NCBI GenBank assembly: GCA_027486675.1
Contig: JAIXOQ010000026.1
Location: 1-49,909, forward strand
DNA from: Pseudomonadota bacterium
GTDB taxonomy: Bacteria > Bdellovibrionota > UBA1018 > CAIMNF01
Direction of reading: 5' to 3'
DNA: 49,909 bases
Below, piece after piece: positions 29,071 to 45,694 of the stretch. A program made the translations under genes and the position numbers. The notes below the pieces were generated by a model. The model was not told the origin of the DNA. It made no database searches and saw only the letters and a program-made list of their open reading frames with translations. Position 1 is the stretch's first letter, and every line of letters begins with the position of its first letter.

Positions 29071-29333
29071 TCAATCGTCATTTGTTTGTATCATGTCGGG
29101 AAATTGTCCAATAATGGGACATGTATGGGAAGTTTTTCCCACAATGGGATTGACTAGGTTCTTTCTAGGGCAAACTACTGCGGGGGCGAACACCCGCAAA
29201 TCTTCGCCACTCGGAGAGTTTTTTCAAAGTTACAAGGGTGCTGATTTTGAGTTACTGCCGCAATCATCCAATTTCACGCCTGATAACGGGAAACTGCATG
29301 AGCTGAACGCCATTGTTGCCTACCTTTGGCGGC
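29071..29333 (+). other. Intergenic region with several small hairpins, no gene
   Basis: The segment holds short inverted repeats: GTCC/GGAC around 29107-29120, TGGGAA/TTCCCA near 29127-29142, and GCGGG/CCCGC near 29181-29198, then CTCGGAGAG followed by T6 near 29212-29226, which could terminate transcription of the GpZ-like gene. A frame crossing the region (29030-29410) overlaps both neighbours and has no protein-like character. Confidence 0.45.
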
Positions 29334-30038
29334 ATGAAAAACGACATCAAACTTCACTATTGGCCACTCGAACGACTGCGCCATTATGCCGGCAATGCAC
29401 GCAAGCATGACGAGCGCAACGTTGAGGAAATAGCCGCAAGCATCAGCCGCTTTGGGTTCGTGAACCCCGTGTTGGTTGATGCAGATGGCGAAATCATTGC
29501 CGGGCATGGTCGCGCACTAGCAGCGGAGTTTTTGAAGCTCTCAAAAGTGCCGGTGATTGTGCTGAACGACCTGAGCGAAGCAGAGAAACGCGCGCTTCGC
29601 CTTGCGGACAATCGCATCGCTGAAAAGTCCACATGGGACAATGATGCCGTTCAGGCAGAGCTTCGCGCACTCCGTGAATTAGATGCAAGCACAGAGGGCT
29701 TGGGTTGGTCGGATGCGGAGCTTGAAAACATGCTCCGTGAAGCCGAGAGCATTTTGCCCGATGATCCTTACGAGCCACCGCAGCGCACCATCGTAAGCGA
29801 GCGCAGCGATAGAGCCGACAGCAACAACGACAACGACACGGACGAAAAGCCGCTGCGACCTGCAGAGCCGAAGTCCTCTGATGATGATTATTCGCTGTTC
29901 GAGCTAGTCATGCTCCATGAAAACAAGGTTCGCCTTGTCGAAGTCCTAAGTCAGATTAGGGCGGATAAGCTATACGACAAATTGGAAGACGCACTCATGC
30001 ACATGGTTCGTCACTATACGGGGGAGCCGAATGCGTAA
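29334..30038 (+). CDS. ParB-like nuclease-domain protein
   Basis: This 234-aa protein has an N-terminal ParB/Srx-fold domain: YAGNARKHDERNVEEIAASI, RFGFVNPVLVDADGEIIAGHGRALAA (about 40-65), then LRLADNRIAEKSTWDNDAV. The rest is charged and probably disordered (about 150-190) with a helical C-terminus. Such domains, alone or fused to methylases, are common in phage DNA-modification loci. The 3' end overlaps the cupin gene by 8 bp, so it opens a tightly packed five-gene cassette ending at 33122. Confidence 0.85.
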   Translation: MKNDIKLHYWPLERLRHYAGNARKHDERNVEEIAASISRFGFVNPVLVDADGEIIAGHGRALAAEFLKLSKVPVIVLNDLSEAEKRALRLADNRIAEKSTWDNDAVQAELRALRELDASTEGLGWSDAELENMLREAESILPDDPYEPPQRTIVSERSDRADSNNDNDTDEKPLRPAEPKSSDDDYSLFELVMLHENKVRLVEVLSQIRADKLYDKLEDALMHMVRHYTGEPNA

Positions 30039-30750
30039 TCCTTCCTTTAGCCGGTTCGGGTTTGACGGCACACTGTTCCACGACAACGACATTACCGTGT
30101 ACGGTATCCGTGGCCACAACCACGTACCGATGCAGGGTGGCGCATGGTTCGTGTACGTGCATTCCGGCATCGTGCAAGCCCGTGGCGACATTGTGCTGAC
30201 TGCCGGCATGTACGGGGTGGTGAATTGGGGCAACATCGTTGTGTTGGAACACAGCGAAGTGCTGCTAGTCCACCACTCAAAACATCAGGCCTTGCACACC
30301 TTTGGCGGTCCCATCGAGGAACGGGGACGGCTTGCCTACATCGATGGCTGTACCGATACGCAGCTCTTGCCGCCTGTTCGCAAGGGTGACCCCTGCCTAA
30401 ACCACCTGCACTTCCCTATCGACATCAACCAAACGCAGCACACCCACCCATCCATCAGGGTTGGCATTGTGGCTCGTGGCTATGGAGAGTGCGTCACACC
30501 CTTTGGCAATGCCGAACTTCGGGAGGGTGACATCTTCCTCATTCATCCCGAAGACGGGAGCAAGGCTCTAGGGGTGGATGGTCAGCAGCACTTGGTTGGT
30601 ACCCACTCGTTCAGGACACGGTACCGGCAGATGGATGTGGTCGCATTCCACCCTGACAGCGAAGTCGGTCCTACTGACGAGCTGCATCAGATGAAAGTTG
30701 CCACCATCATCAACGGCATCAGCGCAAGCGACATGGAGCTGCGCCGGTGA
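30031..30750 (+). CDS. Bicupin-like protein
   Basis: This 239-aa protein is likely to contain one or two cupin barrels. The second is clearer: HLHFPIDINQTQHTHPSIRV (about 125-144), GYGECVTPFGNAELREGDIFL, with the His-x-His and later Glu/His spacing of metal-binding cupins, and HSFRTRYRQMDVVAFHPDSE near the end. The first half (HNHVPMQGGAWFVYVHSGIV) has a similar strand rhythm. Cupins range from enzymes to sensors. It is coupled by overlap to the ParB-like gene upstream and to the PAPS-reductase-like gene downstream, so it is probably part of the same pathway. Confidence 0.7.
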   Translation: MRNPSFSRFGFDGTLFHDNDITVYGIRGHNHVPMQGGAWFVYVHSGIVQARGDIVLTAGMYGVVNWGNIVVLEHSEVLLVHHSKHQALHTFGGPIEERGRLAYIDGCTDTQLLPPVRKGDPCLNHLHFPIDINQTQHTHPSIRVGIVARGYGECVTPFGNAELREGDIFLIHPEDGSKALGVDGQQHLVGTHSFRTRYRQMDVVAFHPDSEVGPTDELHQMKVATIINGISASDMELRR

Positions 30751-31448
30751 GGATAAAGACCGTTGGCCATGCCTACGACCTGAAAGACAAGACCGATGAA
30801 GCTCGTGCAATCCTTGACGAGTTTCTGCCAACGGTGAAGTCACCACTAATCGCATTCAGTGGCGGCAAGGATAGCATCGTGTTGTCACACATGCTTGCCA
30901 CGTACTATGGGGTAAAAGATGCAATCTGCGCCAACTCCTACTGGTTTGCTCGAACTGATGCGGAAATACGCACTAAGGTTGTGCCGGCACTTGGAATCCA
31001 TGTTACTTATTGGGACCGGTTGGGAGCCTATTGGATATTCAAACGGGAGAATCGTAAGTATATATGGCCTACGGATACTAGAACTTTCGGGCAATTCTAC
31101 GCCCTCTGCCAACAGTCCACAGTCAAGCGACATGCGCTTGGCAGCGGTAATGATGCTGTGCTGTATGGACGACGGAAGCAGGAAAATGTTGTGCCTGCTC
31201 CAACCTATCGAACACGAGACGGACTACACAACTGTTTCCCACTAATCAGTTGGCGGCACGAACATATTTGGACGTACATCAGGCGTCACGAGCTGCCGTA
31301 TCCATCCATCTACGAGTACGAGCTTGGCTCAAAGGAAGGCTGTACATCGTGGAACATGATTGATCCGCGGATGTACAAACAGACACCTTCCGAGCTGATT
31401 GAAGAGTTTTGCCCGACTACATGGAACAAGATTAGGGATAGGCTGTGA
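30747..31448 (+). CDS. PAPS reductase/DndC-like PP-loop ATPase
   Basis: This 233-aa protein is an adenylating PP-loop enzyme of the phosphoadenosine phosphosulfate reductase family. SGGKDS is at 38-43, followed by the family's later motifs, including LISWRHEHIWTYIRRHELPY. Relatives activate sulfate or transfer sulfur to nucleic acids (CysH, DndC). It starts at GTG, overlapping the cupin stop (GTGA), and overlaps the next gene by 4 bp in the same way. Substrate unknown. Confidence 0.85.
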   Translation: MRIKTVGHAYDLKDKTDEARAILDEFLPTVKSPLIAFSGGKDSIVLSHMLATYYGVKDAICANSYWFARTDAEIRTKVVPALGIHVTYWDRLGAYWIFKRENRKYIWPTDTRTFGQFYALCQQSTVKRHALGSGNDAVLYGRRKQENVVPAPTYRTRDGLHNCFPLISWRHEHIWTYIRRHELPYPSIYEYELGSKEGCTSWNMIDPRMYKQTPSELIEEFCPTTWNKIRDRL

Positions 31449-32626
31449 GGCGACAACTCCGGCAGAAGTCGTTCACCGGGCAGGACGTGTACTCGGCATC
31501 CTTGGAGCGAGTGCGCTACCTGTACAAACGGTTCGACCACGTAATCATTTCTTTTTCCGGCGGCAAAGACAGCACCGTTGTTTTGAACATCACAATAGAG
31601 GTTGCCCGTGACCTTAATCGTCTACCTGTTCGTGCGATATTTGTCGATGAAGAAGTCATCGACCCCTACACGATAGAATACGTGAGCCGGGTTCGTGAGC
31701 TGCCCGAAGTGCAGTTGGATTGGTACTGCTTGCCGGTCAAACACCGTAACGCCTGTAGCACCGAACAGCCGTATTGGTACTGTTGGAACCCCGAAGAACG
31801 CCACCTTTGGGTTCGGGAGCCACCACCGTGGGCAATCATGGAGCATCCCGAACTAGAGCTAGGCGAAAGCTACCAACAGTGGATGCCCCGCATATTCCCC
31901 AACAGCATGGGGAGTGTTGCTTTGCTCACCGGCATCAGGACGCAGGAAAGCCTAAGACGGTTTCAGGTCATTGCCGGCAAACGGAATGATCCTTACATCA
32001 AGACACGAGCCATTGCGCACAACTGCTACAACACGCATCCAATATACGATTGGAGTACGGAAGACGTATGGAAGTATGTTCAGGTAAAGAGCCTAGACTA
32101 CAACCGATGCTATGACGTGTTCAACCATACGGATATGCACGGAAAATTGCTGCAGCAGCGAGTTTGCCAACCTTTCGGAGAAGAACCACTGCGCAAGCTC
32201 CATGTGTACGCAGAATGTTTTCCCGAAATGTGGGCGAAGATGCTAGGGCGTGTAAAGGGCGTGAACACGGCGTTCCGATATGCGAATACGGAACTGTATT
32301 TGAGCGGCACAAAGCCCGATGGCATCAGTTGGGAGGACTATTGCCACCAACGAGTGCTTGACTACACCGATGAAGCCATCCGCAAAAAGGTGGAAGGCAA
32401 CATTCAAGCCCTTATCCGTAGGCATTACCGCAAAACAGATGACCCCATAGACGATGCAATTGCCCACCCCGTAAGTGGTTGCAGTTGGCGTTTCCTATCG
32501 AAAATCGCTGTAAAAGGCGATTTGAAGAACAGAACCCAAAACAAGATGCTCAACGAAGCGATGAACCGTTGCAAGCAGTTGGGCATCACCACTGATGAAG
32601 CGAAGGAGCTATACGGACGTGCGTAA
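31445..32626 (+). CDS. ibrA: IbrA-like PAPS reductase-family protein (DUF3440)
   Basis: This 393-aa protein is a second PP-loop enzyme with SGGKDS at 38-43. NTHPIYDWSTEDVWKYV (about 198-214) is the typical second motif, and a long C-terminal domain (RKLHVYAECFPEMWAKMLGR onward) fits the DUF3440 extension of IbrA/YbdN. It starts with GTG overlapping the previous stop. IbrA is usually encoded with the ParB-like IbrB, and an IbrB-like gene follows here. IbrAB are known as activators of eib genes in E. coli; the underlying chemistry is not settled. Confidence 0.85.
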   Translation: MRRQLRQKSFTGQDVYSASLERVRYLYKRFDHVIISFSGGKDSTVVLNITIEVARDLNRLPVRAIFVDEEVIDPYTIEYVSRVRELPEVQLDWYCLPVKHRNACSTEQPYWYCWNPEERHLWVREPPPWAIMEHPELELGESYQQWMPRIFPNSMGSVALLTGIRTQESLRRFQVIAGKRNDPYIKTRAIAHNCYNTHPIYDWSTEDVWKYVQVKSLDYNRCYDVFNHTDMHGKLLQQRVCQPFGEEPLRKLHVYAECFPEMWAKMLGRVKGVNTAFRYANTELYLSGTKPDGISWEDYCHQRVLDYTDEAIRKKVEGNIQALIRRHYRKTDDPIDDAIAHPVSGCSWRFLSKIAVKGDLKNRTQNKMLNEAMNRCKQLGITTDEAKELYGRA

Positions 32627-33122
32627 CGCTCAACCTATCGACACAGTTAGGTGGGTACATCGGGACACATTGAAACCCAATCACTACAACCCGAACAGCG
32701 TTCCACCTCCCGAACTCGAACTCCTAGCCATCAGCATCAGGGAAGATGGATGGACACAGCCCATCGTAGTCAATCCCGACATGACCATTATTGATGGCTT
32801 CCATCGGTGGACTGTTAGCGGCCAATTGGAGGTGTACAAGCTTACCGGCGGCATGGTTCCGGTGGTCACTATAACCCCGCTCGATATGAGTAGTCAGATG
32901 ATGGCAACTGTGCGCCACAATAGAGCTAGGGGAATTCACGGCGTATTGAAGATGGCGGACATAGTTGAACGCATGTTGAACAGTGGCGTTCAAGTTTCAG
33001 AGATATGCCGTAAATTGCAGATGGAAACAGAAGAAGTCTATCGACTAGCCAACAGAAAGGGCATTCCTAGAACAGCACTTATCAAGAATGCTGAATGGTC
33101 TGAAAGTTGGGTACCAAAATGA
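32595..33122 (+). CDS. ibrB: IbrB-like ParB-domain protein
   Basis: This 175-aa protein has the ParB/Srx domain with HYNPNSVPPPELELLAISI, EDGWTQPIVVNPDMTIIDGFH (about 53-73), where DGFHRW replaces the GERR motif of true ParB, as in the IbrB/YbdM family. A C-terminal HTH-like region follows (VSEICRKLQMETEEVYRLAN). The longest frame overlaps ibrA by 32 bp; GTG at 32619 would give an 8-bp overlap and fits the GTG usage of the two upstream genes. It closes the cassette 6 bp before the small terminase gene. Confidence 0.82.
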   Translation: MKRRSYTDVRNAQPIDTVRWVHRDTLKPNHYNPNSVPPPELELLAISIREDGWTQPIVVNPDMTIIDGFHRWTVSGQLEVYKLTGGMVPVVTITPLDMSSQMMATVRHNRARGIHGVLKMADIVERMLNSGVQVSEICRKLQMETEEVYRLANRKGIPRTALIKNAEWSESWVPK

Positions 33123-33128
33123 CCGAGT

Positions 33129-33698
33129 ATGAGCAAAAAGCAATCAACTTCAGGAGAAAAGCCTTTATCCGTCAGCGAGTACGCCCGCCGTAAGGGCGTA
33201 AGCCATACATCTGTGTTTCGTGCCATTGATGCCGGCAGATTGGTAAAGGGGTTGGTGGTTCTAGCCAACGGCAAGAAAGGCATCATCGAGAGCATTGCCG
33301 ACAAAGAGTGGGTGGAGAATACGAACACCGATCACCACTTTTCCCGATACAGCGTTCAGGGTGGGAAGAACGCCACCGATATCGACCCCGAAGAAACTAA
33401 GGCGCAGTCACAGAACAGATTGCAGGCTGCCAAACGTGCCAAAGCCATTTTCGATGCCAAGCTAGCCGAGCTAGACTACAAGAAAAAAGCCGGCATATTG
33501 GTCGAGAAGGATAAGGTGTACAAGAAGCTGTACGAGTTTGGGCAGGTATTACAGAGCGAGTTGTTGGCAATTCCCGACAAAGTAATAGACGAGCTGCTTG
33601 CTACCGACAACAGGAATGAAGCAGTAGCGAAGTTGTACGACGAGATAGCGGGCGTATTGGAACGACTTACGAAGTACGACAATGCCGAGGTAGTTTAA
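33129..33698 (+). CDS. Small terminase subunit
   Basis: This 189-aa protein has an N-terminal winged/HTH region (SVSEYARRKGVSHTSVFRAIDAG) followed by a helical region (AKAIFDAKLAELDYKKKAGILVEKDKVYKKL), the pattern of Nu1/DUF1441-type small terminases. It would recognise the packaging site (probably cos, since the large subunit is lambda-like). It is 2.3 kb upstream of the large subunit with RNA genes and SSB between, which is unusual. Confidence 0.78.
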   Translation: MSKKQSTSGEKPLSVSEYARRKGVSHTSVFRAIDAGRLVKGLVVLANGKKGIIESIADKEWVENTNTDHHFSRYSVQGGKNATDIDPEETKAQSQNRLQAAKRAKAIFDAKLAELDYKKKAGILVEKDKVYKKLYEFGQVLQSELLAIPDKVIDELLATDNRNEAVAKLYDEIAGVLERLTKYDNAEVV

Positions 33699-33705
33699 AA
33701 TTCGG

Positions 33706-33765
33706 GTAAAAATTACGCAAAAATATTTTTTTGGTATTCAAAAATGTGTATTTTTGCTCTGTATT
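33706..33765 (+). promoter_or_regulatory. Promoter/operator of the tRNA-like cluster
   Basis: The perfect -7 box TATTTTTG (33749-33756) has a TTTG at 33730-33733, 15 bp upstream, closer than usual. Just before it is GTAA-N3-TTAC (33706-33716). On the minus strand that region reads TTTTTGCGTAATTTTTACC, matching the core of the three early promoters but facing the other way, so it may be an operator here. It follows the small terminase stop by 7 bp. Confidence 0.6.
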
Positions 33766-33811
33766 CATATCGATAGGTTTTCCTGCCGTGTTTCCACACG
33801 GGAGGATATTT

Positions 33812-33876
33812 GGAGAGAAGTTCAACTGTTTGAGAGTTGATTATTGGTAAAAGTGGTTCGATTCCACCTCTCTCCG
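33812..33876 (+). tRNA. tRNA-Ser-like RNA lacking one arm
   Basis: The acceptor stem GGAGAGA/TCTCTCC (33812-33818, 33869-33875) is perfect and with G73 resembles bacterial tRNA-Ser. The T arm is GTGG-TTCGATT-CCAC. Only one further hairpin exists (CAACT/AGTTG with the 7-nt loop GTTTGAG), so the RNA is 65 nt with no separate D arm. The loop could present TTG, or TGA if read one base later. A hairpin (CCTGCCGTG/CACGGGAGG) lies just upstream at 33782-33804. It is either a reduced tRNA or a tRNA-like decoy. Confidence 0.5.
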
Positions 33877-34001
33877 CGCAAAAGACCAACACGAGAAAGG
33901 CGTGGGCTAAAACGAACAGTGTTTTTGCAAGCGGCACGACAGTAACCCACACCCCTGCAAAGGGGCGTTGCAATGGCTGACAGCCGGAAAGACGGCAACA
34001 T

Positions 34002-34114
34002 GGGGCAAGGGTTCGAACTTAGTAGTGAAACAAACAAGCTGCCGGTACGTAACGGTGCAGAGCATGTCAGTAGCTATGTTTAAGGTTTGGGCGGGTTCGA
34101 CTCCCGCAGCTCCG
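34002..34114 (+). ncRNA. tmRNA-like tRNA-Ala-like RNA without a clear tag frame
   Basis: The 3' end has a perfect T arm GCGGG-TTCGACT-CCCGC and AGCTCC, as in tmRNA. The 5' end GGGGC (34002) pairs with GCTCC (34109-34113), with G-U at the third pair, the alanine identity mark. The 5' side has GGGTTCGAAC, resembling the GGxTTCGAC of tmRNA. GAACTTAG and TAAGGTTT can pair as a P2-like helix, enclosing about 60 nt with a CTGCCG/CGGTGCAG hairpin. It is far shorter than a normal tmRNA and no ALAA-type tag is seen. The preceding 33880-34000 has further stems (GTGGG/CCCAC, CCCC/GGGG, GGCT/AGCC), so the RNA may be longer. Confidence 0.4.
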
Positions 34115-34220
34115 CAACCTTTTTTATGCGAAGCAGGCCGAAGCGAAGACGTTCAGTGTTCGGCAAAATTCTGAATTGCGCTTGACGGGTGGCGACCCGT
34201 GACAGTTGGAACGACAACGG

Positions 34221-34290
34221 AAGGAAGTAGCTCAGTTGGTTAGAGCCGTGGGTTGCCACGAGGTCACGGGTTCGATGCCCGTCTTCTTTT
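34221..34290 (+). tRNA. tRNA-like RNA with a shortened anticodon arm
   Basis: The acceptor AAGGAAG/CTTCTTT, D arm GCTC-AGTTGGTTA-GAGC and T arm ACGGG-TTCGATG-CCCGT are all normal. Between D and T arms are 24 nt instead of the usual 28. The stem CGTGG/CCACG (34247-34251, 34256-34260) encloses only GTTG, so there is no 7-nt anticodon loop. TGCC within it hints at descent from a Gly (GCC) tRNA. It cannot decode in the normal way. Confidence 0.55.
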
Positions 34291-34295
34291 CAAAT

Positions 34296-34406
34296 GCAGT
34301 TGTGGCGGAATTGATAGACGCTCATGTTAGGGGTTAAATAACCCACGCTGAAACAATGCTCCATGAATGTAGACGTACAATGCAGGCTCGAAACCTGCCA
34401 ACTGCA
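34296..34406 (+). tRNA. tRNA-Leu-like RNA with a 28-nt insertion in the anticodon loop
   Basis: A perfect acceptor GCAGTTG/CAACTGC, A73, a Leu-type D arm (GCGGAATTGATAGACGC), a class II variable arm (TGTA-GACG-TACA) and T arm GCAGG-CTCGAAA-CCTGC mark a tRNA-Leu. The anticodon stem TCATG/CATGA (34322-34326, 34362-34366) encloses 35 nt rather than 7. The insertion contains the hairpin GGGTT-AAAT-AACCC. TTAA within it is compatible with a UAA anticodon. The insertion is too short for a group I intron. Confidence 0.6.
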
Positions 34407-34474
34407 CTAAACTATTTTTTAACCCGACGGAGAAACGGCAAGGAAATAGTATCCCGATGGAATATCGGCACATC

Positions 34475-34550
34475 ACCCGGAACGTGGCAGAAATCTTAAC
34501 GGGATAACGTTTCGTTATACCCTTGTACAAGTAGCCTGCCGGGTATTTTT
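34475..34550 (+). terminator. Structured RNA/terminator ending the tRNA-like cluster
   Basis: ACCCGG (34475-34480) pairs with CCGGGT (34539-34544), which is followed by ATTTTT. GGCAG/CTGCC can extend or compete with this helix, and GGGATAACG-TTT-CGTTATACCC forms an inner hairpin (34501-34522). CCGAT/ATCGG forms another at 34454-34468. It ends 23 bp before the next gene. It may simply terminate the RNA operon, or be a further structured RNA. Confidence 0.5.
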
Positions 34551-34572
34551 CAAGTCAACAAAAACCACAAAT

Positions 34573-34845: not shown

Positions 34846-34846
34846 C

Positions 34847-35347
34847 ATGGCACTCAATCGTTATCAGTTTACAGGAAACATCGGCAAAGACGCCGAAGTC
34901 CGAACCCTTGAGAATGGCTCTATCGCAATCGGCTTTACTGTTGCGGTATCGGAGAAATACAAAGACCGTCAAGGCAACGAACAGACAACCACCACATGGG
35001 TGAATTGCACCCGTTGGGTAGTTGCAGGCGGCAGCACAGCCATTGCACCGTACCTCAAGAAAGGCACGAAGGTACTCGTTGAGGGCAAGCCATTGGCACG
35101 GGCATACAACACCAATTCGGGAGAGGTAGCCGCATCGCTAGAGGTGCGAGTTGATACCATCGAGCTGTTGGGGCAGCCACAGCAGCAAGGCGCAGCAGGG
35201 CAGCAAGCAGCACCGCAACCACAGCCGCAGCCACAAACGCAGCATAGGTCACAAGCACCACAGCCGCAGGTGTACACGCCACAGCACCCAATTACGCAGC
35301 ATCAATGGCCGGCAGCAGTTGGCGCAGACGATGATTTGCCGTTCTAA
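34847..35347 (+). CDS. ssb: Single-stranded DNA-binding protein
   Basis: This 166-aa protein has the SSB OB fold: MALNRYQFTGNIGKDAEVRT, FTVAVSEKYKDRQGNEQTTT and WVNCTRWVVAGGSTAIAPYLKKGTKVLVEG, then a Gln/Pro-rich linker (about 108-155) and the acidic tip DDDLPF, the protein-docking tail conserved in bacterial SSB. ATG at 34847 starts the domain correctly. Unusually it is between the two terminase genes rather than with the early replication genes. A terminator follows at 35365. Confidence 0.93.
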   Translation: MALNRYQFTGNIGKDAEVRTLENGSIAIGFTVAVSEKYKDRQGNEQTTTTWVNCTRWVVAGGSTAIAPYLKKGTKVLVEGKPLARAYNTNSGEVAASLEVRVDTIELLGQPQQQGAAGQQAAPQPQPQPQTQHRSQAPQPQVYTPQHPITQHQWPAAVGADDDLPF

Positions 35348-36033: not shown

Positions 36034-37872
36034 ATGCAGATTATTAAAGGTTACCTTGACGGGTTGCGCCCTATTCCTCGAATGACGGTATCGGAGTGGT
36101 CTGACCAATTCCGATACCTTTCAAGTGTGGCTGCTGCTGAATCAGGGCTTTGGAAGACTTCCAAGACGCCCTACCTAAAAGAAATTATGGATGCTTTGAG
36201 TGCCTATTCCACCTACCAAAAGGTAGTGTCGAAGAAAGGCGCACAGCTCGGCTTTACCGAAGCCGGCAACAATTGGATTGGTTATATCATTGATGCTGCT
36301 CCCGGTCCTACATTGATGGTGCAGCCAACTGACGACATGGTGAAACGCAACTCCAAAATGCGTATCGACACCATGATTGAAGCTACACCACGGTTACGGC
36401 AGAAAATTGCACCTGCCCGTAATCGGGATAGCAACAACACCATCAACAGCAAGGGCTTTCCCGGTGGCATCCTTGTGATGGCAGGAGCGAACAGTGCTGC
36501 GGGGCTTCGCTCTATGCCGGCACGCAACCTTTTTTTGGATGAAGTGGATAGCTACCCGCAAGACCTTGATGGGGAAGGTTCGCCAATCGACCTTGCCATA
36601 GCTCGTACCCGTACGTATGGGCGGAAAAAAATCTACATCGTTTCCACCCCTACGGTGCAGGGGCATTCCGTTATCGATGCCGAATTTGAGAGTACCGACC
36701 AACGGCATTTCTTCGTGCCTTGTCCCCATTGCGGCTGCTATCAGACGTTGAAGTTCGAGCGGCTACGTTGGCAGAAAGGCAAGCCCGAAACCGTTGCCTA
36801 CTCCTGCGAGCATTGCGAAGAGGCGATACCGCACCGCTACAAGGCGAAGATGCTAGCCAACGGAAGATGGATAGCGACTAAGCCCGAAAACGCCAATCCC
36901 GACACAGTCGGCTTTTTCATAAGCTCTCTGTATTCACCATTTGCCGGCTACACATGGTCGCATATTGCTGCTGACTACGAAGATGCAATAGGCGATACGC
37001 CTAAGATGAAAACGTTTGTCAACACCGTGCTTGGCGAGTGTTGGAAAGAAGAAGGCGAAGCGCCGCCCTACAAAAACCTATACAACCGGAGGGAAGAATA
37101 CCAACCGAACACCCCGAATAAGGATGTTGCATTCATCACAGCAGGGGTGGACGTTCAAAAAGACAGGCTAGAGCTAGAGCTAGTAGGGTGGTGCGAGGGT
37201 AAGCGGGCGTACTCAATCGACTACCGTGTGCTGATGGGTGACACGGCAAAGCTCCCCGTTTGGGACGAGCTTGCAAAGGTCGTTGGGGAACGATGGGTTC
37301 GTGAGGACGGAGCCGAAATGCCATTGCGCATGATGGCAGTAGATACGGGGTACAACACGAGCTACGCATACGACTTCTGCCGCAGGTTCGATGCCACTAG
37401 GGTAGTTCCCGTGAAGGGTTCCGACTCACTCAATCTGCATATTTCCGCACCTCGCCAAATCGACACCTCACGGAGTGGGCGCAAGATTGGAGGAACAAGG
37501 GTGTGGATGGTAGGTTCGTCCATGATAAAGTCAGAGATATACGGATGTTTGCGCCTCGAAAAACAAGAGGACGGAACGCCACCACCCGGCTATTGTCACT
37601 TTCCGCAGTATGACGAGAATTATTTCAAGGGGCTAACCTGCGAAACGTTGCAGTTTCGAGTGGTCAAAGGCTTTCGAAAGTACGAGTGGGTGAAGCCCGA
37701 CCATGCCCGAAACGAGCCATTGGACTGCCGTGTGTATGCGAGAGCTGCTGCTGCAGTAGTTGGGATGGATAGGTTTACTCAACGAGATTGGCAGGACATG
37801 TACAGCTCGTATGTGACTGTTACCAAGACAACGGAAGTAAACAAGAAACGTAGATCATCGTACTGGGACTAG
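36034..37872 (+). CDS. Large terminase subunit (GpA family)
   Basis: This 612-aa protein is of the lambda gpA family, which cuts at cos and packages DNA. The ATPase part has KKGAQLGFTEAGNNW (a variant P-loop region, about 67-81) and Walker B NLFLDEVDSYPQD (about 166-178). A zinc-ribbon-like region CPHCGCY...CEHCEE (about 230-265) follows. The nuclease part begins TAGVDVQKDRLELELVGW (about 369-386) and has VDTGYNTSYAYDFC. The C-terminal acidic/aromatic segment fits the family. The gene is in the late operon before the gpW-like connector and portal. Confidence 0.93.
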   Translation: MQIIKGYLDGLRPIPRMTVSEWSDQFRYLSSVAAAESGLWKTSKTPYLKEIMDALSAYSTYQKVVSKKGAQLGFTEAGNNWIGYIIDAAPGPTLMVQPTDDMVKRNSKMRIDTMIEATPRLRQKIAPARNRDSNNTINSKGFPGGILVMAGANSAAGLRSMPARNLFLDEVDSYPQDLDGEGSPIDLAIARTRTYGRKKIYIVSTPTVQGHSVIDAEFESTDQRHFFVPCPHCGCYQTLKFERLRWQKGKPETVAYSCEHCEEAIPHRYKAKMLANGRWIATKPENANPDTVGFFISSLYSPFAGYTWSHIAADYEDAIGDTPKMKTFVNTVLGECWKEEGEAPPYKNLYNRREEYQPNTPNKDVAFITAGVDVQKDRLELELVGWCEGKRAYSIDYRVLMGDTAKLPVWDELAKVVGERWVREDGAEMPLRMMAVDTGYNTSYAYDFCRRFDATRVVPVKGSDSLNLHISAPRQIDTSRSGRKIGGTRVWMVGSSMIKSEIYGCLRLEKQEDGTPPPGYCHFPQYDENYFKGLTCETLQFRVVKGFRKYEWVKPDHARNEPLDCRVYARAAAAVVGMDRFTQRDWQDMYSSYVTVTKTTEVNKKRRSSYWD

Positions 37873-45589: not shown

Positions 45590-45661
45590 CGTGGCGTAGA
45601 GCAGCGGTAGCTCATCGGGCTCATAACCCGAAGGTCGCAGGTTCGAGTCCTGCCGCCGCAA
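45590..45661 (+). tRNA. Initiator tRNA-fMet (CAT)
   Basis: A full cloverleaf is seen: acceptor CGTGGCG/CGCCGCA, D arm GAGC-AGCGGTA-GCTC, anticodon arm TCGGG-CTCATAA-CCCGA with CAT at 45622-45624, variable AGGTC and T arm GCAGG-TTCGAGT-CCTGC, A73. The C1-A72 mismatch and three G-C pairs at the base of the anticodon loop are the bacterial initiator hallmarks. CCA is not encoded. It lies within the tail operon between the tube and chaperone genes, so it would be co-transcribed late. Confidence 0.9.
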
Positions 45662-45694
45662 CTATTTTATCACAACAAACAAGAGGAAAACACA

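What the first reader, a model, noticed from the sequence alone, without database searches (positions are those of the whole stretch)
33698..34572. Cluster of tRNA-like RNAs, each with intact acceptor/T arms but a different broken body
Seen: four RNA genes in 600 bp have well-formed acceptor stems and T arms, yet one lacks a D (or anticodon) arm, one has a 4-nt anticodon loop, one has a 28-nt anticodon-loop insertion and one is a short tmRNA-like form. They sit behind a promoter with a perfect -7 box and end in a terminator-like structure. Known: phages carry tRNAs to offset codon bias or evade host anticodon nucleases, sometimes with altered anticodon loops. Inference: uniform retention of the ends with varied loss of decoding parts suggests selection for tRNA mimicry (decoys for nucleases, synthetases or modification enzymes, or aminoacyl donors) rather than translation. 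Random decay is the alternative.
Basis: partly seen in the sequence, partly recalled or inferred. Interest (0 to 1): 0.78.

Follow-up and report, generated by a model that had tools for sequence, protein, structure and literature searches.

The report
Phage array of non-decoding tRNA look-alikes
A phage carries a hidden block of RNAs that keep the ends and elbow of a tRNA but lack a usable decoding arm; similar blocks, often marked by one small conserved hairpin, recur in phages of many bacteria including E. coli prophages, so they look selected rather than broken, although what they do is unknown.

Summary
Window 33812-34406 holds four tRNA-like RNAs between TerS and SSB/TerL. E3 and E4 reach the Rfam tRNA cut-off in the narrow scan and E1 has perfect tRNA ends. 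E2 is only weakly tmRNA-like. An ends-only scan finds three of them where shuffles give 0.004.

They are not isolated wreckage. Related phages (TerL 50-65% identical) carry their own odd tRNA-like genes, and so do unrelated Pseudomonas, Xanthomonas and Aeromonas phages and E. coli prophages. In two homologous sets the changed anticodon arm is invariant while acceptor or T stems change with compensation (8 of 37 pairs in three Pseudomonas phages; a T-stem pair in E. coli, where annotation calls it a pseudogene).

The window linkers hold a conserved hairpin, UGACAG-YY-GGARAGAC-RR. It lies beside tRNA-like genes far above chance (11 of 32 against 0.6 expected). It occurs in 436 of 5426 E. coli genomes, intergenic wherever listed, and in none of 368 other genomes sampled. 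It is not in Rfam.

I read the locus as a mobile-element-specific array of non-decoding tRNA-like RNAs. Selection is supported for relatives and inferred for the window. Decoy action is a guess; decay of the window copies is not excluded.

The parts
33749..33756 (+). Bacteroidota-type -7 box TATTTTTG upstream of the array (putative promoter; no -33 box at consensus spacing)
   Evidence: pattern search; sequence
33812..33876 (+). E1: tRNA-like RNA with intact acceptor and T arm and only one further hairpin (D arm or anticodon arm missing)
   Evidence: ends-only scan; sequence; below Rfam tRNA cut-off
33877..34000 (+). structured linker between E1 and E2, ending in the conserved hairpin
   Evidence: sequence; linker comparison
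33978..33999 (+). copy 1 of the conserved hairpin TGACA-GCCG-GAAAGA-CGGC-AAC, just 5' of E2
   Evidence: absent from Rfam
34001..34114 (+). E2: short tmRNA-like/tRNA-like RNA with T arm GCGGG-TTCGACT-CCCGC and a 6-pair acceptor; shares GTAGYGAAACAA...GAGCATGTNAGTAGC with an RNA of phage G058
   Evidence: cmscan 18.4 bits, below cut-off; pairwise match to G058 element c, 0 of 300 shuffles
34179..34200 (+). 22-nt hairpin segment CGCTTGACGGGTGGCGACCCGT, identical in the TerS-SSB gap of related contig L005
34199..34217 (+). copy 2 of the conserved hairpin, TGACA-GTTG-GAACGA-CAAC, just 5' of E3
   Evidence: hairpin scan; alignment
34221..34290 (+). E3: tRNA with canonical acceptor, D and T arms but a 4-nt anticodon loop; G3:U70 in the acceptor
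   Evidence: Rfam tRNA 42.9 bits; ends-only scan
34296..34406 (+). E4: tRNA-Leu-like RNA with long variable arm and a 35-nt anticodon loop (28 nt extra)
   Evidence: Rfam tRNA 32.3 bits; ends-only scan
34407..34572 (+). structured 3' part of the CDS-free region
   Evidence: sequence; no intrinsic terminator found at its end

Best explanation
This is an unannotated non-coding locus of a temperate tailed phage that makes an array of tRNA-like RNAs no longer able to decode. Each keeps the acceptor and T arms, and usually the D arm, so that the tRNA elbow can form. The anticodon arm is shortened (E3), expanded (E4) or replaced together with the D arm (E1, E2). Structured linkers carrying a mobile-element-specific hairpin, UGACAG-YY-GGARAGAC-RR, separate them. 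Shown here: the elements, their recurrence in other phages, conservation of altered arms with compensatory changes in two other phage sets, and the association of the hairpin with tRNA-like genes. Inferred: the same selection acts on the window copies; the tRNA elbow makes the RNAs stable and handled by host tRNA machinery; the altered arm is the working part, most likely binding or occupying a host factor that acts on tRNAs or ribosomes during infection or lysogeny.
For: Three ends-only hits in the region against 0.004 expected and 72 of 74 assigned stem pairs intact. Relatives G058, G060, G083 and G066 have their own odd tRNA-like genes at other sites. Itty13/Shamal/Haboob homologues: 8 of 37 pairs changed on both sides, 99.1% of cells paired, 0 of 500 shuffles, altered anticodon arm invariant in its stems. 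E. coli prophage tRNA-Gly 'pseudogene': altered arm identical in the two variants, T-stem pair changed on both sides, encoded CCA kept. Hairpin beside tRNA-like genes in 11 of 32 cases, binomial p about 1e-11; hairpin stem covaries; found in 436 of 5426 E. coli genomes, intergenic in those listed, and in none of 368 other genomes sampled. Long CDS-free gaps with the hairpin and/or tRNA-like genes in cultured phages. Linker module of E. coli prophages, P1-like plasmids and epsilon15-like phages folds with 10 of 42 predicted pairs showing double changes.
Against: No homologue of E1-E4 themselves was found, so conservation of these particular RNAs is untested. Several closest relatives have TerS directly next to TerL without any array. 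Many arrays with the hairpin hold mainly normal tRNAs (Arthrobacter plasmids, L196, L206). About two thirds of hairpin copies have no tRNA-like gene within 350 nt, and some lie in 5' leaders of genes, so the hairpin may have a separate role. No expression, processing or aminoacylation data. The covariation tests rest on three sequences or two variants.
Confidence: 0.5

Rival explanations
1. The four window RNAs are ordinary phage tRNA genes in decay: a once functional tRNA cluster lost decoding parts by small deletions and insertions and is no longer used.
For: Phage tRNA clusters turn over quickly. E3 differs from a normal tRNA only by a loop about 3 nt short. Related phages hold quite different tRNA sets. 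No homologue of E1-E4 was found.
Against: 72 of 74 assigned stem pairs are intact. Four different losses all spare the ends. Altered arms are conserved in two homologous sets elsewhere. The linkers keep a covarying hairpin found in unrelated phages.
Confidence: 0.22
2. The tRNA-like parts are domains of one large structured phage RNA comparable to GOLLD or ROOL (large phage RNAs found by tRNA islands, which form RNA cages), and the whole transcript, not the single tRNA-like RNAs, is the working molecule.
For: In Itty13/Shamal/Haboob the tRNA-like domain is closed by 12 bp plus about 8 bp of covarying helix. The 4_L372X and phiA005 tRNA-like elements also have extended closing stems. The loci are CDS-free gaps of about 650-1000 nt, often beside terminase genes. 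GOLLD can hold a tRNA in its linker and ribosomes bind it in pull-downs (PMC12286853).
Against: No GOLLD or ROOL match at E<=10 in the window or at E<=0.1-0.5 in other loci. Window elements and most others have at most 2 pairs beyond the 7-bp acceptor. The modules look mosaic, not one conserved fold.
Confidence: 0.13
3. The tRNA-like elements are processing punctuation: minimal RNase P and RNase Z substrates (acceptor plus T arm) that cut a polycistronic precursor and release the linker RNAs, which are the functional part.
For: The acceptor/T arm is the part that RNase P and tRNA 3'-processing enzymes recognise (established knowledge). Linkers of 100-330 nt are structured. A linker module shared by E. 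coli prophages, P1-like plasmids and epsilon15-like phages is conserved with compensatory changes.
Against: Does not explain why the altered anticodon arm is invariant in the Pseudomonas and E. coli sets, nor the elements locked in longer stems.
Confidence: 0.09
4. The linkers are self-cleaving HDV-like (theta) ribozymes that mature ordinary phage tRNAs, as known for gut Bacteroidota phages.
For: Theta ribozymes lie next to phage tRNAs, mostly in Bacteroidota phages (PMC10879173); the linkers are structured.
Against: A descriptor search found no HDV-like motif at any tRNA-like 3' end in the window, G060 or G083, and only one chance-like hit in G058. The descriptor had no positive control. No ribozyme family matched in Rfam.
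Confidence: 0.03

Closest known systems
Phage tRNAs with anticodon-loop mutations that evade host anticodon nucleases (van den Berg et al. 2023, PMC10264068)
   Same: Phage-encoded tRNAs changed in the anticodon loop; clusters in phage genomes.
   Different: Those are normal cloverleaves with point changes that are thought to still decode. Here the anticodon arm is shortened, lengthened by roughly 18-110 nt or replaced, and decoding is implausible.
GOLLD and ROOL RNAs (PMC12286853; PMC6582537)
   Same: Large structured phage RNAs of unknown function beside tRNA islands; GOLLD can hold a tRNA or pseudo-tRNA inside.
   Different: No sequence or covariance match. Here several tRNA-like elements per locus, linkers with a different conserved hairpin, mosaic make-up.
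Theta ribozyme-tRNA arrays (Kienbeck et al. 2024, PMC10879173)
   Same: Structured RNA elements next to phage tRNAs, notably in Bacteroidota phages.
   Different: Theta ribozymes sit at tRNA 3' ends with an HDV fold; in the window the hairpin lies just 5' of the tRNA-like genes, and no HDV fold was found.
tmRNA (ssrA)
   Same: E2 and G058 element c share an acceptor/T arm and GYGAAAC...GCATGTNAGTAGC stretches reminiscent of tmRNA ends.
   Different: About 114 nt, no recognisable tag frame or pseudoknots, far below the Rfam cut-off.

Membership tests
tRNA (Rfam RF00005) | Covariance-model score over the curated cut-off | tested here: inconclusive
   E3 42.9 bits and E4 32.3 bits pass (cut-off 29; E4 only in the narrow scan); E1 and E2 do not reach it
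tRNA (Rfam RF00005) | 7-nt anticodon loop with U33 and a readable anticodon | tested here: not met
   E3 loop is 4 nt (GTTG); E4 loop is 35 nt; E2 has no anticodon arm; E1 has one hairpin with loop GTTTGAG that may be either arm
tRNA (Rfam RF00005) | Aminoacylation and CCA addition | not testable with these tools
   CCA not encoded in E1-E4; encoded in G083, FoX1 and E. coli relatives; needs experiment
tmRNA (RF00023) | Score over cut-off, with tag reading frame and pseudoknots | tested here: not met
   E2 18.4 bits against cut-off 47, length about 114 nt; host has a normal tmRNA, 195.6 bits
GOLLD / ROOL | Match to the Rfam covariance models | tested here: not met
   no match in the window at E<=10, in 14 loci at E<=0.1 or in 10 loci at E<=0.5
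GOLLD / ROOL | One large fold with long-range pairing, oligomeric cage | not testable with these tools
   needs a deep alignment and structure work
Theta (HDV-like) ribozyme | Double-pseudoknot HDV fold with catalytic C at the tRNA 3' end | tested here: not met
   descriptor search in the window, G058, G060 and G083; no positive control was run
Anticodon-nuclease-resistant phage tRNA | Intact decoding tRNA altered at a nuclease cleavage site | tested here: not met
   anticodon arms of E2-E4 are not decoding-competent; E1 lacks one arm
Anticodon-nuclease-resistant phage tRNA | Protects translation or absorbs nuclease during infection | not testable with these tools
   needs experiment

The most novel reading that the evidence does not exclude
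Phages and some plasmids of several bacterial phyla carry a so far undescribed kind of RNA locus: arrays of selected, non-decoding tRNA-like RNAs, often marked by a mobile-element-restricted hairpin (UGACAG-YY-GGARAGAC-RR). Current annotation leaves them as empty gaps or 'pseudogenic tRNA', and hundreds of E. coli prophages have such a locus.
Probability: 0.45. Interest if true: 0.9.

Novelty: new variant of a known kind. Interest (0 to 1): 0.75.

Why it matters
Phage tRNAs that look broken are routinely discarded as pseudogenes. If part of them are conserved non-decoding RNAs, phages run a hidden layer of tRNA mimicry that could bear on tRNA-targeting defences, lysogeny or ribosome control. 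Because relatives sit in E. coli prophages and P1-like phage-plasmids, the question can be tested in standard laboratory strains, and the hairpin gives a simple handle to find such loci.

Tried and rejected
HDV-like/theta ribozymes in the linkers: descriptor gave no hit in position, and the published motif (PMC10879173) places them at 3' ends. GOLLD, ROOL, known ribozymes and riboswitches: no Rfam match. E2 as a true tmRNA: score too low and the model also scores plain tRNAs. Anticodon-loop introns: the loops have no consistent U33/anticodon once the insert is taken out (by eye, folds). Suppressor-tRNA recoding: ORFs end in TAA, TAG and TGA, so no recoded stop. G3:U70 as an alanine signature: in E3, but in E2 and G058 element d it depends on the register, so dropped. 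Literature search for the hairpin sequence: no paper. Search of relatives through the protein next to the G058/G060 clusters gave few loci. Pattern search for the E2 motif found only G058.

Full report
What is there. The window is contig C22 (49,909 nt) of a 2.7-Mb assembly and reads as a tailed temperate phage: terminase small subunit 33129-33698, single-stranded DNA-binding protein about 34846-35347, terminase large subunit 36034-37872, tail genes and an integrase. The CDS-free stretch 33699-34572 holds four tRNA-like elements on the + strand. E1 (33812-33876) has perfect acceptor pairing, a T arm and one further hairpin. E2 (34001-34114) has a T arm, a 6-pair acceptor and a long body. E3 (34221-34290) is a tRNA with a 4-nt anticodon loop. 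E4 (34296-34406) is tRNA-Leu-like with a 35-nt anticodon loop. Rfam scores E3 at 42.9 bits and, in the narrow scan, E4 at 32.3 bits (cut-off 29); E2 reaches only 18.4 bits with the tmRNA model (cut-off 47), and that model also scores ordinary host tRNAs up to 33 bits. ARAGORN reports none of the four.

More than chance. A scan that asks only for a T arm and an acceptor, with any body, finds E1, E3 and E4 in this stretch; 500 shuffles give 0.004 hits on average. Of the stem pairs I assigned, 72 of 74 are standard; I chose the stems by eye, so this leans upward. The promoter claim is weaker: a perfect -7 box lies at 33749, but a -33 box at consensus spacing is missing, and no intrinsic terminator was found at the end of the cluster.

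Relatives of this phage. Phages whose large terminase is 50-65% identical were fetched. Several have the small terminase gene directly before the large one with no array. But G058 carries, at another site, a tRNA with a 25-nt anticodon loop, a normal tRNA-Met and two short tmRNA-like RNAs. G060 carries a homologue of the first with an odd anticodon arm plus a normal tRNA-Cys. G083 has a 67-nt and a 118-nt tRNA-like gene. G066 has one tRNA whose anticodon arm is a continuous helix of about 12 bp. The G066 gene follows the tail-tube gene, the same place where the window has a normal tRNA-Met. E2 and a G058 RNA share the stretch GTAGYGAAACAA...GAGCATGTNAGTAGC (0 of 300 shuffles).

The hairpin. 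Comparing linkers showed CAGCCGGAAAGACGGCAAC in the window and a near copy in G083. An exact search for 16 nt of it hit 49 viral contigs. 32 of them extend to CAG in front, the other 17 do not, which separates the real element from chance hits, many of them in coding sequence. Aligned, the element is UGACAG-YY-GGARAGAC-RR with a 4-bp stem in which three pairs change on both sides somewhere (one of 45 rows, L231, is misaligned). The window has two copies, 33978-33999 and 34199-34217, each just 5' of a tRNA-like element. Of the 32 copies, 11 have a tRNA-like gene within 350 nt on the same strand, against 0.6 expected (binomial p about 1e-11). In cultured phages it lies in long CDS-free gaps: Xanthomonas FoX1, Pseudomonas Itty13, Aeromonas 4_L372X and phiA005, Vibrio 1.123.O; it also lies in an Acinetobacter plasmid and 5' of tRNA-Lys genes in Arthrobacter-group plasmids. 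It is in 436 of 5426 complete E. coli genomes, in all listed rows outside annotated genes, in a 1-kb leader after a phage repressor gene in the two that I opened. Among 369 genomes of the assembly's phylum only the window has it. No Rfam family matches it and no paper in the library prints it. Some copies sit in coding sequence or in 5' leaders of single genes, so it need not be part of tRNA biology everywhere.

Altered arms are conserved. The 101-nt tRNA-like RNA of Itty13 has homologues in phages Shamal and Haboob. The altered anticodon arm is invariant in its stems. The closing helix is 12 bp, not 7, is followed by another 8 bp, and 8 of 37 pairs changed on both sides in three sequences (99.1% of cells paired, 0 of 500 shuffles). 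In E. coli prophages of the epsilon15 type a 110-nt tRNA, annotated as pseudogenic tRNA-Gly, exists in two variants about 93% identical. Its lengthened anticodon arm is identical in both, a T-stem pair changed on both sides, and the encoded CCA is kept. A linker module upstream of it is shared with the hairpin prophages and with P1-like plasmids, where it lies about 90 nt after tRNA-Ile; RNAalifold finds 10 of 42 pairs with double changes in five sequences. These are small samples, but both sets point away from decay.

Two builds. Most altered-arm RNAs, including E1, E3 and E4, have at most 2 pairs beyond the 7-bp acceptor and could be freed as tRNA-sized RNAs. The Itty13 and 4_L372X/phiA005 ones are locked into longer stems and are better seen as domains of a larger RNA.

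Reading. The best-supported account is an array of non-decoding tRNA-like RNAs, set in structured linkers, kept by phages. What is shown: the elements, their recurrence, conservation in two other sets, and the hairpin association. What is inferred: that the window copies are under the same selection, that the elbow serves for stability and recognition by host tRNA enzymes, and that the altered arm does the work. Decoy action against tRNA-cutting defences is a plausible use, given that phage tRNAs are known to evade such enzymes (PMC10264068; PMC11555353, abstract), but nothing here tests it.

Compared with the known. Phage tRNAs with anticodon-loop mutations remain cloverleaves. GOLLD and ROOL lie near tRNA islands and GOLLD can contain a tRNA, and ribosomes bind GOLLD (PMC12286853), but no locus here matches their models. 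Theta ribozymes sit at tRNA 3' ends (PMC10879173); none was found, though my descriptor had no positive control. I therefore rate this a new variant of a known kind, phage tRNA loci, with a real chance that it is a separate class.

Limits. No homologue of E1-E4 themselves was found. The assembly around the window may be a wrong bin: host tRNAs encode CCA and the phage's do not, so the host is uncertain. No expression data exist. The tools cannot test charging, processing or function.

Noticed in passing
window 45590-45662: An ordinary tRNA-Met(CAT) with initiator features (C1-A72 mismatch, three G-C pairs in the anticodon stem) sits between the tail-tube gene and the next tail gene; relative G066 has a tRNA with a roughly 12-bp anticodon arm after the same tube gene (L149 1098-1192).
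   Followed up: partly
G000 contigs C10, C23, C18 against C22: Host tmRNA and several host tRNAs encode CCA while the window's tRNA genes do not, and phage relatives include a contig of a Bacteroidota bin (L027); C22 may be wrongly binned.
   Followed up: partly
L218 1902-2023 and L219 2005-2023: In Arthrobacter and Paenarthrobacter plasmids with giant tRNA arrays the hairpin lies right in front of tRNA-Lys genes.
   Followed up: partly
L234 4009, 4058, 4495, 4559, 4732: The E. coli prophage leader repeats the octamer GGAAAGAC five times within about 730 nt; from memory the same octamer lies at 23S rRNA 2056-2063 in the peptidyl-transferase region, perhaps by coincidence.
   Followed up: no
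L237 1333-1600: In a P1-like phage-plasmid a covarying RNA module with a UGACA-hairpin lies about 90 nt after tRNA-Ile and before dnaB (ban).
   Followed up: partly
L217 822-948: Aeromonas phage 4_L372X seems to have a tRNA-like element nested inside another (two T arms within one acceptor), where phiA005 has a 72-nt version.
   Followed up: no
L241 1004-1103: In phage epsilon15 the homologous RNA region is annotated as an RNase III mRNA-processing site, between the portal and terminase genes.
   Followed up: no
window 29313-33119: Two PAPS-reductase-like proteins (one with DUF3440) between two ParB-like proteins, next to the terminase small subunit.
   Followed up: no
L005 1145-1166 and window 34179-34200: A 22-nt hairpin is identical in the TerS-SSB gaps of two phages whose gaps otherwise differ.
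   Followed up: partly
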